From Sistotremastrum niveocremeum HHB9708 (taxonomy: Eukaryota > Basidiomycota > Agaricomycetes > Sistotremastrales > Sistotremastraceae), in contig KV419398.1 of assembly GCA_001630475.1 (NCBI GenBank), forward strand, positions 36,453-100,452: DNA of 64,000 nt. Reading direction: 5' to 3'. This document shows positions 16,914 through 22,822 of this stretch, piece after piece. The notes beneath the pieces are model-generated. The model did no database searches. It saw only the letters and a list, made by a program, of their open reading frames with translations, and had not been told where the DNA came from. Position 1 is the stretch's first letter. Each line of letters opens with the position of its first letter. The position numbers and the translations under genes were made by a program.

Positions 16914-17011
16914 CTTCTGAAAAAATTAGACCTACTAATTGTACTTTTGAGCGCTCTGGAGTACTAAAAAGTACTCAAAAGTACAATTAGTAGGTCTAAT
17001 TTTTTCAGAAG
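16914..17011. repeat. 98-bp perfect hairpin MITE
   Basis: Two perfect 38-bp inverted arms start CTTCTGAAAAAATTAG and end in ...ACTTTTGAG, separated by a 22-bp loop that itself contains GAGTACT...AGTACTC. A transcript would form an almost complete hairpin. Its outer 16 bp differ by a single base from the ends of the element at 17147-17264, so both probably use the same transposase source. No clear target duplication was found. Confidence 0.8.
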
Positions 17012-17146
17012 CCAGTGATATCTGTGACTGAATGATGACCTCACGGGAAGGTTCAGCACCTGTGGAACATGTGATGGAGGGTGACATGTAGAGTTCCAAG
17101 GTCCAGTCCACGTGACTGGTCGTATTGGGCAACCGGCTTCAGAAAA

Positions 17147-17264
17147 AATTAGCTGCTATTTCTGCTATTTCTTGCTATTTTTCAGCTATTTAGCAGAAAA
17201 ATAGCCAAAAAATAGGCTATTTATGCTATTTAGGCTATAAAACCTGGCCTAATTTTTTCTGAAG
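17147..17264. repeat. 118-bp MITE sharing ends with the hairpin MITE
   Basis: The termini are the 16-bp inverted repeats CTTCAGAAAAAATTAG / CTAATTTTTTCTGAAG. The interior is a run of GCTATTT words in both orientations (CTATTTCTGCTATTT, AATAGCCAAAAAATAG). It has no coding capacity. Only the last 16 bp match the neighbouring 98-bp element. Confidence 0.75.
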
Positions 17265-18159: not shown

Positions 18160-18966
18160 ATGAAGCTCGCTCTCTTTTTTGCCTTTACGAGACATCGTGC
18201 ATCTTCGAAAGATAACACCCAACGCCATGACCAACTCACGGAGTGAGACTGAAACGGAAATGGATTGACAACCTGGAACACTTTCTGAACTCAGCTGTAG
18301 TGAACTTCAATCTGACGAATATCTATACCCTCTGTTCGAGAAATACCTTCAAGAAACGAGAAGATTCTTGCCAGATATATTCTTCGAAGGTACGACTCCG
18401 ATATCTCTACCCCGAGACCGTTTGCGATTTCTCAGCCTCCGTGACGCTATAGAGGAAGTTGATACAACCCCTAAATCCAGGGACAAAATCCCTCAGCTTC
18501 TGACATGGCAGATGCAAGACCTTTGCACAGATTTATATGATGAAATGAGACGTAGAACACTGGAAGTTGAAAGTGCGTAATGCAAACTCCGAGATTCAAT
18601 TTCTTGCATTCAAATACTGTTCTCCTTCGACGGTAGCCTCGCTACCACACCGGGACGATATTGAGCCCGAGCGCAATGCCGCTCGCAAGAAGCTCTCAAA
18701 ATTGCGGTTGTGTCGCTTTGAAGATCTGTGTTTTGACATCTTACGAGAGCTCAAGTTTTGTTACCTGCATTTGAAAGAAACAAAGGTGTGATCAGGTTTC
18801 TACACAAGGAGCTCACTTATTAATCGGTAATAAGGAGGAAACTCTGTCATCCACGATAAGACTGTCAGCCTTCGTCGATCCTCCTCCGCCTTACTCTCGA
18901 TGCGAAGACCGACATGAACACACCGAATCCCTTCGTGCTCGATTTTTCTGTGGATTGTTTGGCTAA
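18160..18966 (+). CDS. Spa2/GIT-type SHD mini-protein 1
   Basis: Predicted 184 residues, five exons, introns at 18243-18294, 18390-18452, 18573-18636 and 18788-18860 (the last is the least sure). Two SHD-like motifs are visible. The first, at residues about 70-94, is degenerate (KIPQLLTWQMQDLCTDLYDEMRRR region). The second, at about 113-137, is ARKKLSKLRLCRFEDLC...DILREL. SHD repeats (PF08518 type) are known from Spa2/Sph1 polarisome scaffolds and GIT proteins, where they bind MAP-kinase-kinase or PAK/PIX-type partners. Spa2 is far larger; this protein is essentially the two repeats plus an N-terminal helix (YLYPLFEKYLQETRRFL) and the tail DPPPPYSRCED...FFCG. Two further genes downstream share this plan. 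The start ATG gives MKLALFFAF, but other starts are possible. Its promoter was hit by a hAT-like element. Confidence 0.65.
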
Positions 18967-19227
18967 ATCCCTTACTGGGTATACCAGACTACTTTTGTGC
19001 CAGCGAGCTTGTAGGTTGAATAAGGACGTTTTTTGTGAATATATACGTTGGCAAGGATCTTTTCTCAGTAATACACGTGTGCATGCCGGCCGGCCGTTTG
19101 TGGAGAAGAAGTCAGACGTCACGGTGTGACACTTACCCGTTGCCTTGACCACAACTCGGCCTCCAAGTTCATTGTTCCCAAGGTTGTGTCTTCACTTTCG
19201 TGTTAAGACCGGCGCTTTTCATTGGAA
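18967..19227. other. Short spacer between SHD genes
   Basis: No gene seen; it ends where the 302-bp MITE begins. Confidence 0.5.
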
Positions 19228-19529
19228 TTAAGGCTTCCAACGAGTATTGGCCAAATGGGTATACCCGTGGGTGTACTCGCGCAGGTACCTGCCAAAATTA
19301 GCGTGGGTGGGTATGAGGTTGGCCATTGAACTTTTTGGTGGGTACCTGCCTCCAAGAAAGTGTTTCAATTTCACTATTTAACCACAAAACAAGACACTTG
19401 ACATGGGTATACCTGCATGGGTACCCATACTTGGCAAGTACGGGTATGAGATTTTGGCCCAAAAAAACAGGCAGGTACCCGCACGCAGGTACCTGAGTAC
19501 CACAGGTACATATTCGTTGGAAGCCTTAA
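19228..19529. mobile_element. 302-bp MITE directly upstream of SHD gene 2
   Basis: Perfect 16-bp terminal inverted repeats TTAAGGCTTCCAACGA / TCGTTGGAAGCCTTAA are flanked by direct repeats TTGGAA (19222-19227 and 19530-19535). The interior carries many GGGTACC/GCAGGTACC words in both orientations. An alternative reading is a TTAA target with shorter ends (piggyBac-like). It has no coding capacity. It ends 54 bp before the start codon of the next gene, so it probably supplies part of that promoter or 5' UTR. Confidence 0.75.
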
Positions 19530-19583
19530 TTGGAATTTGGTCTTTCCAGTGTCCTTCGGTTTCTCCAAATAAATTTCTGAGCT

Positions 19584-20328
19584 ATGGCAAATCACTCGGT
19601 CTCCGAAGAGCGATTCCGCATCGTTCAGCATGCATCAGGTCTCCCGTTCGAGCTGTCGGAATCAGGTTCTGTTGTGCCAACACCTTCGACTCTCAGACTT
19701 GGTTTCCGATTCACTCTGGATGGCACAACAGAAGAAGAAACTCATAAACATGAACTCCACGATGAGTTCTTTGTTACTTGTTTCCGAGCCATGAACGAAT
19801 TTCTCTCGGATGACTTGATCAAAGGTTGGGTTGACCTTTCGTGGGAAGATTAGCGCCTGACATTCATCAGAGAAAAAAGTAGTGAAACGCAAGACCGCCA
19901 GGGAGAAGATCCGAAAGCTCACCAAACATCCATTCCTGGAGTTGTGTACCGATGTCTATGATGAGATGAATCGAAGGACTGGAGACGAAGAAGGCGAGCT
20001 TCAGTTTATGATATAATATATGCCTTATGCTGACTTTCAGTCACAGTACCTTTCCTCCCCCCTCGCGAAGGCTTCCATCCGAAGCGCAATCAAGCTCGTC
20101 AAAAGCTTTCAACGCTGCCCCTCCATCGCTTTCAGGATTTGTGCTCGGACATTCATTCTGAGCTAGAGAATCAATATTTCTCGTCAAAAGAGGGGACGGT
20201 AAGAAACCATTTTGAGACGTTCCCTATGCTTGCGTTGATCCCGAATGTCACAGATAATACCCCGGACGCCGGCATCTGGTCATTCCGACTTAAACGATCC
20301 GCCTCCTCCGTACAGTCCAAGCGATTAG
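19584..20328 (+). CDS. Spa2/GIT-type SHD mini-protein 2
   Basis: Predicted 198 residues from four exons with introns at 19825-19870, 19994-20040 and 20199-20253. The start is the ATG of MANHSVSEERF. SHD-like repeat 1 (residues about 90-115) reads ARE-KIRKL then FLELCTDVYDEMNRR. Repeat 2 (about 135-160) reads NQARQKLSTLPLHRFQDLC then SDIHSEL. Both match the SHD consensus ARxKLxxLxxxxFxDLxTDVYDExxRR better than in gene 1. The tail ends NDPPPPYSPSD. The second intron keeps the family phase only if a GC donor (GCGAGC) is used, so it appears to be a GC-AG intron. It is likely a cytoplasmic scaffold or adaptor; the binding partner is unknown. Confidence 0.7.
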
Positions 20329-20648
20329 GAAGAATACAATCAACTCAACCTCTATCACAATGCTTGGCAAAGACTACTGCGTAACTCACGGATGTTGTCT
20401 GAGCATACTATGGTCCAACGCCCCTCAGCATACCATTATTTTGCAATTGCTGTCGCTAGCAATACTGTTGCCAATGAATTTCCATTCTCCAACGCGAAAA
20501 CTCGAGATTATTATCAGTTGATGATAGTAGTTACAGGCAATCTTAGTCGACTTCTTCCACCCGACCTACTAATGACTTCGAGTACTAATGAGACATTCTC
20601 ATCCTGTTCTCAGATATCTGGCAGGCGCAATGAAAACACGTTCGATAA
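20329..20648. other. Spacer between convergent genes
   Basis: 3' regions of SHD gene 2 and of the leftward bHLH-like gene; nothing else recognised. Confidence 0.45.
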
Positions 20649-21515
20649 TCATAAACTCTGATCATTGAGATAATCTGTATATCTGTGTTGCGAGTGATCG
20701 AGGTTGTTGGTTACGTCGCTTATGTATTGTGGGATGTAGAAGTTGAGTTCCTCAATCGGGAACATACCATCCCCCGGTAGAGGGACGTAAAGCGGAAGCT
20801 CCTCTCGAGGAACGAAATGATCTTCGAGACTAAGCTGGCCTGTGAGAGAAAGTCAGGATTCATGATTGATTCTTCTCTTAATATAAGAGATTCGACGTAC
20901 TGAAGTGATGTGATAGCTGCACAAAACGATTAGGGTCGTTGATGTCAGGGATCAGCCAGGAGTCTGCGTCAATGAATTGACGGTCATCTCGATCGGCTGT
21001 CCTCCGATTCCTTGTGCTGGCAAGTAATCAGCGTTCATTTGAATGGCACCGTTGCGGCTTTGTAGTGTGCATTCGTACAATATTCTCCGAAGTTGTTCCA
21101 CTTGTTAGTTAGAGCCCTACACACGAATCGTCGGTCGATGTTGCTAAACGATGCCGAGGTCGAATATGACATACTGAATTTGTTGCTCTTGATTATATTT
21201 CACTTCAACATCCTCTCTAACAAATATCATGGAAGGGATAATTAATCAGATAAAGGGGATCATTGACATCGAAAATGGACGTGCCCCAGAACCTTGGTGA
21301 CCTGTTCCATGATCACTCTTCTCGTCACCCGTTCACCTCTTGAACTCTGGAAAGGCCGCCTCTCCTGCACAGCATCCGCCATCTCCTTGAAAGCCTGGGC
21401 ATTCCTAGCGCCGTACGATCGCTCGGCAGCGATTGCTTTGAGATCTCGACGAGCCATTTGCTCGGCGGTCGCGGCGCTGTTGCTAGGAACCTCGGGCTCC
21501 TGAAGACAGGACATT
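20649..21515 (-). CDS. bHLH-zipper-like protein, family member 4 (divergent, splicing unresolved)
   Basis: The first exon, from MSCLQEPEVPSNS, carries the best bHLH-like core of the family: ARRDLKAIAAERSYGARNAQ, FKEMADAVQERRP, then a longer loop (FQSSRGERVTRR) and VIMEQVTK. A second exon (DVEVKYNQEQQIQ) corresponds to the 42-nt exon of its relatives. Downstream, clear exon-like pieces exist: VEQLRRI, then RRTADRDDRQFIDADSWLIPD, then LSLEDHFVPREELPLYVP, ending in a stop at 20649. The last intron (GTACGT...CTCACAG, about 20833-20896) is convincing. However, I could not join exon 2 to the third piece with consensus sites in one frame. Either a non-consensus site is used or the copy has started to decay. 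The last about 90 residues differ from all paralogues. Confidence 0.45.
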
Positions 21516-21977
21516 GGAGTGAGAGATGGGGATGTGAAGGTTTGGTTGAAGGTGACTAGATTTTTGACTCGTTGCCATTGGACAGCATCACCGCGAACTT
21601 GTATAGGGACTGTACAGTGAATGAGTCGATGACTGGTTTCCGAAGTCACACCAGTTGACGCAACTGGTAATCCTGGCCCATAGGTGAGTTAACTGGGGCG
21701 ATGTTGAGCCTAGTCATGGTGTGAGATGGTCTTGAGAGCTCGTTAGAGTTGCGCTCAAGTTGGTGCAACGCATTACATAAGTCTTACGTAATGTTCAACT
21801 CGGTTTCGGCAGGTTTCGGCTAACTCGGAGTCCGGATTTCCATTCTCGAACTGTCTCACCGCCTCCTTGGCTAGCCCATCGCCATGGCCACGAAAGCCAT
21901 CTCAGCCAATGATGTTTCACCAGGTTTTCCAAGTGATCCAGTCACTCCCCTGCACCCAGCATCTCTGAGTGCGCGAA
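21516..21977. other. Divergent spacer
   Basis: Shared upstream region of the leftward bHLH-like gene and the rightward SHD gene 3. No motif recognised with confidence. Confidence 0.45.
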
Positions 21978-22822
21978 ATGACCGGATCGCAAGAAGGCTC
22001 GTCTACTGATCAAGACATCATGGAGGCTTCTGCCATAATTCTACCTTATTCTGAGTCTGGTTGGACTACAGGGAGAATCCCTGATGACACGCTCCTGTCC
22101 TCCACGGAACCCATGGTGAATGCTCCGCACACGTCTTCTTCGGACATTTTCCAAACCTGTTACGACGAGTTGGCTAAATTTCTTCCTACCGAGCTCACCG
22201 AAGGTTAGCGAGCTCATCCGATATCACGACCTATCGAGACCACTGACGTGGCATAGAGAATATGGATAACGCCATTATGCCCAAGGAGAAGATTATGACT
22301 CTCAAAACTGAACGATTGCGAGATCTTTGTACTGATGTCTACGATGAAGTGATGAGGAGGGCGGGAAACGGGAGAGGTGAGTCTACATCGACGCCTCGTA
22401 ATCTGGACAATTTATTGATGCCATTTCAAATAAGAGATTCCTCACTTTCCCGCTCCAGAATCTTACCGTCCAAAACGTCAGCTTGCCCGATATAAACTCT
22501 CGGTCATGCCAGCCCACCGGTTTAAGGACTTGTGTTACGTCGTTCATTGGGAGCTTGAACGGCGGCAAGAAAAATCGAGCAACTCGAAAGTGAGATAATA
22601 TCTGTCTCAAATCTCCCGTCTTTGTCTCTGAAATGATTCCGAAAGCAACCGCCGTCTGTGATGTTAAATCCTCACGACCTGCCAGACCCTCCTCCGCCTT
22701 ACAGTCGAGGCGATTGGGAACATGACAGACCAAATGACATGGTCACACCCCGCGTCCGATCTTTTTGTGGACCAGTGGACGTCTCAGAACTCGACGAGGA
22801 CAGCGATGAATATGGTTACTGA
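21978..22822 (+). CDS. Spa2/GIT-type SHD mini-protein 3
   Basis: Predicted 217 residues, four exons, introns at 22204-22256, 22377-22458 and 22590-22645; all frames agree. It starts MTGSQEGSSTDQD. After a helix (DIFQTCYDELAKFLP), SHD-like repeat 1 at residues about 83-113 reads EKIMTLKTERLRDLC then TDVYDEVMRR. Repeat 2 at about 120-147 reads RQLARYKLSVMPAHRFKDLC then VVHWELERR. The tail is DPPPPYSRGDWEHDRP, then RVRSFCGPVDVSELDEDSD, longer and more acidic than in its paralogues. Intron positions match SHD genes 1 and 2, so the three arose by duplication. SHD repeats in known proteins mediate protein-protein binding in polarity and signalling complexes; the role here is inference. Confidence 0.72.

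What the first reader, a model, noticed from the sequence alone, without database searches (positions are those of the whole stretch)
18160..22822. Three tandem mini-proteins made of paired Spa2/GIT-type SHD motifs
Three plus-strand genes each encode about 185-217 residues with two copies of an ARxKLxxLxxxRFxDLCxDxxxE motif, the same intron plan and a DPPPPYS tail. SHD repeats are known from large polarity and signalling scaffolds (Spa2, Sph1, GIT), where they bind kinases and exchange factors. Stand-alone double-SHD proteins in a local family would be natural competitors or modulators of that scaffold. I know of no description of such a set, but I cannot search.
Basis: partly seen in the sequence, partly recalled or inferred. 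Interest (0 to 1): 0.78.

Follow-up and report, generated by a model that had tools for sequence, protein, structure and literature searches.

The report
Short Spa2 copies with PPxY tails
Two related fungi carry three neighbouring genes that are cut-down copies of the front end of the growth-tip scaffold Spa2, each ending in the same short tag that usually binds WW-domain proteins, so they may carry Spa2's partners to a second protein such as a ubiquitin ligase.

Summary
The window is from Sistotremastrum niveocremeum. Three plus-strand genes (192, 196, 225 aa) each encode both Spa2-homology repeats (Pfam GIT_SHD E 4e-19 to 4e-10) and share intron phases 1,1,0 with the host's one full-length Spa2 (941 aa), so they are DNA-level duplicates of Spa2's first exons. 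All three have S. suecicum orthologs (66-83% identity), which argues against debris. Best reading: an adaptor or decoy that takes Spa2 clients and links them to a WW protein, possibly Rsp5. Binding, expression and function are untested. Copy 2 needs a GC-AG intron to encode its second repeat and tail. New variant of a known kind.

The parts
18160..18966 (+). Copy 1 gene, 192 aa; exons 18160-18242, 18295-18389, 18453-18572, 18637-18785, 18835-18966; phases 2,1,1,0 (first intron extra)
   Evidence: ortholog P0121 of S. suecicum, 65.6% identical over 189 columns, begins with a similar 5' stretch
18476..18556 (+). Copy 1, SHD repeat 1 (SRDKIPQLL...YDEMRRR)
   Evidence: Second stretch of the hmmscan hit; aligns with Spa2 repeat 1; not found on its own at E <= 0.001
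18681..18755 (+). Copy 1, SHD repeat 2
   Evidence: PF08518 E 6.5e-4, 25.3 bits, over the curated cut-off, in the six-frame genome scan
18877..18897 (+). Copy 1, DPPPPYS (PPxY) motif
   Evidence: Sequence
19221..19536 (.). About 300-bp MITE-like element between copies 1 and 2, ending about 50 bp before the copy 2 start codon; not part of the proteins
   Evidence: 27-nt terminal inverted repeats, 89% complementary; at least 48 matching places in the genome, this one included, the best others 97-100% identical
19584..20328 (+). Copy 2 gene, 196 aa; exons 19584-19824, 19871-19993, 20047-20198, 20254-20328; phases 1,1,0; intron 2 is GC-AG
   Evidence: ortholog P0002 of S. suecicum, 81.1% identical over 196 columns
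19897..19980 (+). Copy 2, SHD repeat 1
   Evidence: PF08518 E 1.6e-8
20094..20165 (+). Copy 2, SHD repeat 2
   Evidence: PF08518 E 1.8e-6; 28 of 29 residues identical to S. suecicum
20296..20316 (+). Copy 2, DPPPPYS (PPxY) motif
   Evidence: Sequence
21978..22822 (+). Copy 3 gene, 225 aa; exons 21978-22203, 22257-22376, 22435-22589, 22646-22822; phases 1,1,0
   Evidence: Identical to public protein P0001 = SISNIDRAFT_482408; ortholog P0004, 83.1% identical over 148 columns
22286..22360 (+). Copy 3, SHD repeat 1
   Evidence: PF08518 E 3.7e-5; 28 of 28 residues identical to S. suecicum
22473..22565 (+). Copy 3, SHD repeat 2, with Val at the yeast D112 position
   Evidence: Second stretch of the hmmscan hit; residue table; not found on its own at E <= 0.001
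22685..22705 (+). Copy 3, DPPPPYS (PPxY) motif
   Evidence: Sequence

Best explanation
The three genes are old truncated duplicates of the first exons of Spa2, made as genomic copies with introns kept. Each encodes the N-terminal helical SHD module, which in yeast Spa2 grips a short helical motif (FRM) of its clients, the RabGAPs Msb3/4 and the MAPKKs Ste7 and Mkk1. Each lacks the later domains of Spa2. In their place is a short, probably disordered tail with an invariant PPxY motif, the standard ligand of class I WW domains. The most likely working is a soluble two-handed adaptor: the groove takes a Spa2 client and the PPxY hand joins it to a WW protein. The most probable WW protein is the Nedd4/Rsp5 ubiquitin ligase, so that clients are withdrawn from the polarity site and perhaps ubiquitylated. 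Shown here: descent from Spa2, both repeats present, most groove residues kept in copies 1 and 2, invariant PPxY, conservation in two species, and a host gene with three WW domains and a HECT domain. Inferred: client binding, WW binding, the identity of the WW partner, and any effect on growth.
For: Both SHD repeats in all three copies. Intron phases 1,1,0 in copies and host Spa2. Three of three copies have S. suecicum orthologs, each listed on a contig of 343,184 bp. DPPPPYS is 7 of 7 identical in 6 of 6 proteins and is the only fully invariant block after repeat 2; it lies in a low-confidence tail (block means 57-68 in P0002, 48-59 in P0001) after a helical module (85-95 over residues 61-160 of P0002; 67-94 in P0001). 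Foldseek top hits are the solved Spa2 SHD 6lag and the GIT/PIX complex 6jmt: E 3.1e-5 and 1.2e-4 for P0002, only 3.9e-3 and 5.8e-3 for P0001. Nine groove positions named in PMC12831199: copies 1 and 2 and their orthologs keep 8 of 9, the ninth being L48I. Host Rsp5-like gene: three WW domains, then a HECT stretch.
Against: No expression, binding or localisation data. PPxY is short: PP.Y also occurs in 8 of 116 other short hits and 1 of 119 other listed full-length Spa2 proteins, at other places. Rsp5 is not the only WW gene in the host (13 WW matches on 10 contigs). Host RabGAP genes gave no strict FRM (V/I-I/L-D-L/A-Y) in the stretches examined; a relaxed pattern matched in several (e.g. IFDTY, MLDSY, LLNSY) and the RabGAP I guess to be Gyp3/Msb3 has only LTDKY; whether these are coding and exposed was not tested. 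Copy 3 keeps 6 of 9 groove residues and has lost the aspartate that pairs with the FRM tyrosine. Copy 2 needs a GC-AG intron, whose donor GCGAGC is not the usual one (recalled), to be complete in this species.
Confidence: 0.45

Rival explanations
1. Plain competitors: the short proteins only occupy FRM motifs and so keep RabGAP and MAPKK clients off Spa2; the PPxY tail is incidental or merely controls their own turnover by Rsp5.
For: 8 of 9 groove residues are kept in copies 1 and 2. In fission yeast the coiled-coil and FAT domains support Spa2 self-association and cortical enrichment (PMC12450465, passages); only GIT_SHD reaches its cut-off in the copies. Yeast clients compete for one site on SHD1 (PMC12831199, passages).
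Against: Does not explain why PPxY is the only fully invariant tail block in six proteins. Copy 3 has an altered groove.
Confidence: 0.3
2. Modules with changed peptide specificity: the copies bind new partners through the remodelled groove (L48I and S60C in all; L101M and D112V in copy 3) and act in a different pathway, for example mating or fruiting.
For: L48I in 6 of 6 copies, 0 of 120 full-length Spa2 and 0 of 111 parsed other short hits; S60C in 6 of 6 copies, 0 of 120 full-length but 8 of 111 other short hits; D112V in 2 of 2 copy 3 proteins, D112 kept in 120 of 120 full-length and 111 of 111 parsed short hits (5 of 116 short hits not parsed by the pattern).
Against: Leu to Ile and Ser to Cys are mild changes; S60C is not special to this family; no partner is known.
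Confidence: 0.15
3. Decaying gene fragments without function.
For: Public model of copy 2 is truncated; its intron 2 donor is GC. Long branches in the tree.
Against: Open frames, conserved splice phases and 66-83% identity in a second species, highest in the SHD repeats plus PPxY motif: copy 1 57 of 65 against 55 of 106 elsewhere; copy 3 60 of 64 against 63 of 84; copy 2 is less clear, 56 of 64 against 87 of 114; the leading helix, counted apart, is 12 of 18 in copy 1 and 16 of 18 in copy 2. In all six pairs among the copies and Spa2, third codon positions differ more (0.67-0.72) than first and second (0.37-0.57).
Confidence: 0.07

Closest known systems
Spa2 (polarisome scaffold), N-terminal SHD1 module
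   Same: Two SHD repeats with a leading helix, intron phases 1,1,0, most groove residues, fold (6lag)
   Different: Copies stop soon after intron 3; no GIT1_C or VBS-like domain (both present in host Spa2); gain of PPxY; L48I and S60C
GIT1/GIT2 SHD bound to beta-PIX (6jmt)
   Same: SHD module and groove; sequence hit to GIT2, E 3.3e-9, and Foldseek hit
   Different: GIT carries ArfGAP and ankyrin parts (recalled); the copies show only GIT_SHD
Alpha-arrestin (ART) and Ndfip/Bsd2-type Rsp5/Nedd4 adaptors
   Same: Client-binding part joined to a PPxY motif
   Different: Client-binding fold is an SHD module, not an arrestin fold or membrane protein; WW binding untested here
Other short Agaricomycete SHD proteins (Russula, Lentinula, Armillaria, Amanita, Mycena, Jaapia, Peniophora and others)
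   Same: Stand-alone paired SHD
   Different: None of the 14 examined by name has a PP.Y; Lentinula, Armillaria and Amanita ones sit beside their own or a near lineage's Spa2, so they look like separate events; some may be gene-model fragments

Membership tests
Spa2/GIT SHD family (PF08518) | Two SHD repeats, protein score over the curated cut-off | tested here: met
   39.5, 46.3 and 68.2 bits against a cut-off of 21.1, two stretches in each of 3 proteins
Spa2/GIT SHD family (PF08518) | Helical SHD fold | tested here: met
   P0002 model (S. suecicum copy 2): helices over 60-165, best PDB hits 6lag and 6jmt, E 3.1e-5 and 1.2e-4; P0001 (copy 3) weaker, E 3.9e-3 for 6lag, none at E <= 0.001; copy 1 not modelled
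Spa2 orthologs (polarisome scaffold) | VBS-like and GIT1_C domains after the SHD module | tested here: not met
   Only GIT_SHD reaches its cut-off in the copies; host Spa2 has PF23742 and PF12205 as well. Coiled coil not computed
FRM-binding SHD1 modules | Groove residues of yeast L48, L51, L59, D62, K97, L98, L101, L109, D112 | tested here: inconclusive
   Copies 1 and 2 and orthologs keep 8 of 9 (L48I); copy 3 and ortholog keep 6 of 9 (L48I, L101M, D112V)
FRM-binding SHD1 modules | Measured binding to an FRM peptide | not testable with these tools
   Needs a binding assay
PPxY adaptors of Nedd4/Rsp5 ligases | PPxY or LPxY motif in a region predicted to be flexible | tested here: met
   6 of 6 proteins (the public truncated model P0003 of copy 2 lacks it); low-confidence tail in two models
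PPxY adaptors of Nedd4/Rsp5 ligases | Physical binding to a WW domain and client ubiquitylation | not testable with these tools
   A host gene with three WW domains and a HECT stretch exists; binding not tested

The most novel reading that the evidence does not exclude
A fungal lineage has turned the client-binding module of the polarity scaffold Spa2 into a set of ubiquitin-ligase adaptors: three short proteins that use the Spa2 groove to catch RabGAP or MAPKK clients and a PPxY tail to present them to Rsp5, with copy 3 re-tuned by loss of one groove aspartate. This would make the polarisome's client list directly controllable by ubiquitylation.
Probability: 0.27. Interest if true: 0.78.

Novelty: new variant of a known kind. 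Interest (0 to 1): 0.52.

Why it matters
Spa2 is usually described as one large scaffold. A tandem set of groove-only copies, kept in two species and all ending in the same WW ligand, would be a natural separation-of-function experiment: it isolates client binding from scaffolding and points to a way of removing clients from growth sites. Short SHD proteins in other mushroom-forming fungi, some of which look independent in the tree, suggest that such modifiers may evolve repeatedly.

Tried and rejected
Rejected: retrocopy origin (introns kept in phase); more copies elsewhere in the genome (scans with PF08518, copy 1 and copy 3 find only these three and Spa2; counts there are lower bounds); origin of PPxY from a PPxY already in host Spa2 (none). 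In other Spa2 proteins a D[YF]P[ST]P[DE]F stretch follows the SHD module at about the place of DPPPPYS in 36 of 117 parsed (117 of 120 parsed); PPxY may have arisen there, but host Spa2 lacks it and I do not claim it.

Inconclusive: the trees. Six copies form a clade (98/97) and each ortholog pair is supported (100/100, 99/98, 100/100), but the branches are very long and four Russula short proteins join them (85/93), which may be long-branch attraction; the short Jaapia and Mycena proteins do not sit beside their own Spa2. With copy 2 and its ortholog alone, grouping with host Spa2 is not rejected (AU p 0.188) and not shown. NG86 dS could not be computed in 5 of 6 pairs and is 3.4 in the sixth. 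I had no S. suecicum DNA, only proteins, so no ortholog dN/dS. The FRM search covered 20 RabGAP loci of about 3 kb (21 matches, 20 loci fetched) plus one longer region: relaxed matches, no strict one. Host MAPKKs were not searched. Copy 1 was not modelled in 3D.
Full report
What is there. The window lies on a 1,209,971-bp contig of a 34.7-Mb assembly; protein hits on a contig of that length name the organism as Sistotremastrum niveocremeum HHB9708. Three plus-strand genes were modelled exon by exon: copy 1, 18160-18966, 192 aa; copy 2, 19584-20328, 196 aa; copy 3, 21978-22822, 225 aa. Copy 3 is letter-identical to the public protein SISNIDRAFT_482408. hmmscan finds two GIT_SHD stretches in each of the three, E 4.4e-19 (copy 2), 4.1e-10 (copy 1), 3.1e-12 (copy 3) (on first models that differ from the final ones by two residues in copy 2 and eight in copy 3).

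Weak points of the gene models. Copy 1 carries one additional 5' intron; its S. suecicum ortholog begins with a similar stretch (MKIALF...). Copy 2 needs a GC-AG second intron; the public model P0003 reads on differently after repeat 1, giving 162 aa without repeat 2 or tail. In favour of the full form, the S. suecicum ortholog P0002 is full-length and repeat 2 is identical at 28 of 29 residues. RNA data are needed to settle this.

Origin. A PF08518 scan of the host genome finds 6 matches at E <= 0.001: 4 here and 2 in one other gene at C39. That gene encodes full-length Spa2, 941 aa, 100% identical over its length to public SISNIDRAFT_552392, with GIT_SHD, a VBS-like domain and GIT1_C. Its first three introns have phases 1, 1 and 0, as do the corresponding introns of all three short genes. 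Scans with copies 1 and 3 find no further copy. The short genes are therefore truncated genomic duplicates of the Spa2 5' end, not retrocopies. Identity to the host Spa2 N-terminus is 27.1, 45.0 and 30.3% for copies 1, 2 and 3, and 32.8-35.8% among the three copies.

Conservation. S. suecicum HHB10207 has an ortholog of each copy: P0121 (65.6%), P0002 (81.1%) and P0004 (83.1% over 148 columns), all listed on a contig of 343,184 bp, by inference one contig. The triplication thus predates the two species. Identity is highest in the SHD repeats and the PPxY motif for copies 1 and 3 and only mildly so for copy 2. Third codon positions differ more than first and second in all six pairs among the copies and Spa2; dS is saturated.

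The tail. DPPPPYS is identical in 6 of 6 proteins (three window models, three S. suecicum proteins) and is the only fully invariant block after the second SHD repeat. It contains PPxY, the class I WW ligand (recalled; passages in PMC4712785, state that L/PPxY motifs of alpha-arrestins bind the WW domains of Rsp5). Host Spa2 has no PP.Y; 1 of 119 other listed full-length Spa2 proteins and 8 of 116 other short hits have one, at other positions, among them P0107 (FPPPYSP, some distance after repeat 2). AlphaFold2 models of P0002 and P0001 put the motif in a low-confidence tail (block means 48-68) after a helical module. The host has an Rsp5-like gene with three WW domains followed by a HECT stretch, and further WW genes (13 WW matches on 10 contigs).

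The groove. PMC12831199 (abstract, sections 6, 7, 13, 15 and passages read) reports that yeast SHD1 binds a five-residue motif of Msb3, Msb4, Ste7 and Mkk1 in a groove with L48, L51, L59, L98, L101 and L109, and with K97, D112 and, for a reversed orientation, D62 as polar contacts; much of this is AlphaFold prediction backed by mutants. Mapped on the copies by a pattern: copies 1 and 2 and their orthologs keep 8 of 9, L48 being Ile; copy 3 and its ortholog have L48I, L101M and D112V but keep D62. L48 and S60 are invariant in 120 of 120 listed full-length Spa2 proteins (host included; best 120 of 925 hits), while all six copies have Ile and Cys. Among other short hits, 111 of 116 parsed, Leu is kept at L48 in 111 and Cys stands at S60 in 8, so S60C is not special to this family. 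D112 is kept in 120 of 120 full-length and 111 of 111 parsed short hits. So copies 1 and 2 could still grip FRM helices, and copy 3 may have changed orientation or specificity. That is inference.

How it most likely works. The abstract of PMC8824340 (abstract and one passage seen) says that the yeast SHD domain recruits Msb3/4. PMC12450465 (passages) attributes fission yeast Spa2 self-association and cortical enrichment to its coiled-coil and FAT domains and to Pos1. The copies have the first function's module and not the later Pfam domains. A groove-only protein with a PPxY tail is built like a client adaptor: one hand for the client, one for a WW protein. Rsp5 is the first candidate. A pure competitor is the main rival. 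No strict FRM was found in the host RabGAP stretches examined; relaxed matches occur (IFDTY, MLDSY, LLNSY and others), and the RabGAP at C47, which I guess to be Gyp3/Msb3 from its long N-terminal region, has LTDKY. The client is open.

Wider picture. Other Agaricomycetes have annotated short SHD proteins. In Jaapia argillacea (P0036, P0181) and Mycena galericulata (P0005, P0226) a short and a full-length Spa2 are listed on contigs of different length, so there they appear to be separate loci. In the tree some short proteins sit beside their own or a near lineage's Spa2: Lentinula 100/99, Armillaria with Guyanagaster 100/96, Amanita 90/85; those of Jaapia and Mycena do not. Some others may be gene-model fragments. 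One Serendipita protein, P0014, joins a BTB domain to an SHD pair; BTB proteins often recruit Cul3 ligases (recalled), an intriguing parallel, but the source contig is 4,042 bp and a model fusion is not excluded.

Literature. Searches for 'Spa2 homology domain' with SHD (13 papers), Spa2 with PPxY (3), Spa2 with paralog, basidiomycet and polarisome (2), Spa2 with Rsp5 (7 held, 6 listed), PF08518 (0), Spa2 with Agaricomycetes (1) and SHD domain with Spa2 and gene duplication (0) gave no title or abstract start that describes stand-alone SHD proteins or an SHD-PPxY link. The library holds open-licence papers only, and I opened four of them (PMC12831199, PMC8824340, PMC12450465, PMC4712785), none whole.

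Verdict. Genes supported by sequence and by a second species, a well-supported origin, a domain-plus-motif combination that I did not find described, function inferred. New variant of a known kind.

Noticed in passing
19221-19536: About 300-bp MITE-like element with 27-nt terminal inverted repeats, at least 48 matching places in the genome (itself included) and near-identical copies, ending about 50 bp upstream of the copy 2 start codon; may affect its promoter.
   Followed up: partly
16914-17011 and 17137-17264: Two short palindromic elements sharing terminal repeats CTTCWGAAAAAATTAG upstream of copy 1.
   Followed up: no
19994-20046: GC-AG intron in copy 2 that the public gene model does not use, leaving a 162-aa annotated protein (P0003).
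   Followed up: partly
P0014 (Serendipita sp. 399): BTB domain joined to an SHD pair; possibly another link of SHD to a ubiquitin ligase, or a gene-model fusion.
   Followed up: partly
about 23480 onwards, + strand: Cytochrome P450-like gene directly downstream of copy 3 (PF00067 E 1.1e-4, 21.5 bits, just under the cut-off of 22.8, one of two exon frames tested).
   Followed up: no
21260-21688, - strand: 142-aa open frame between copies 2 and 3 with no Pfam match at E <= 0.001.
   Followed up: no
SHD repeats of all six copies: Cys follows the conserved Leu in both repeats (positions 60 and 110 of yeast Spa2), 12 of 12; in the 120 listed full-length Spa2 it is Ser in 120 at the first place, and Ser in 110, Cys in 8, Ala in 2 at the second; among 111 parsed short hits Cys is in 8 and 6.
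   Followed up: partly
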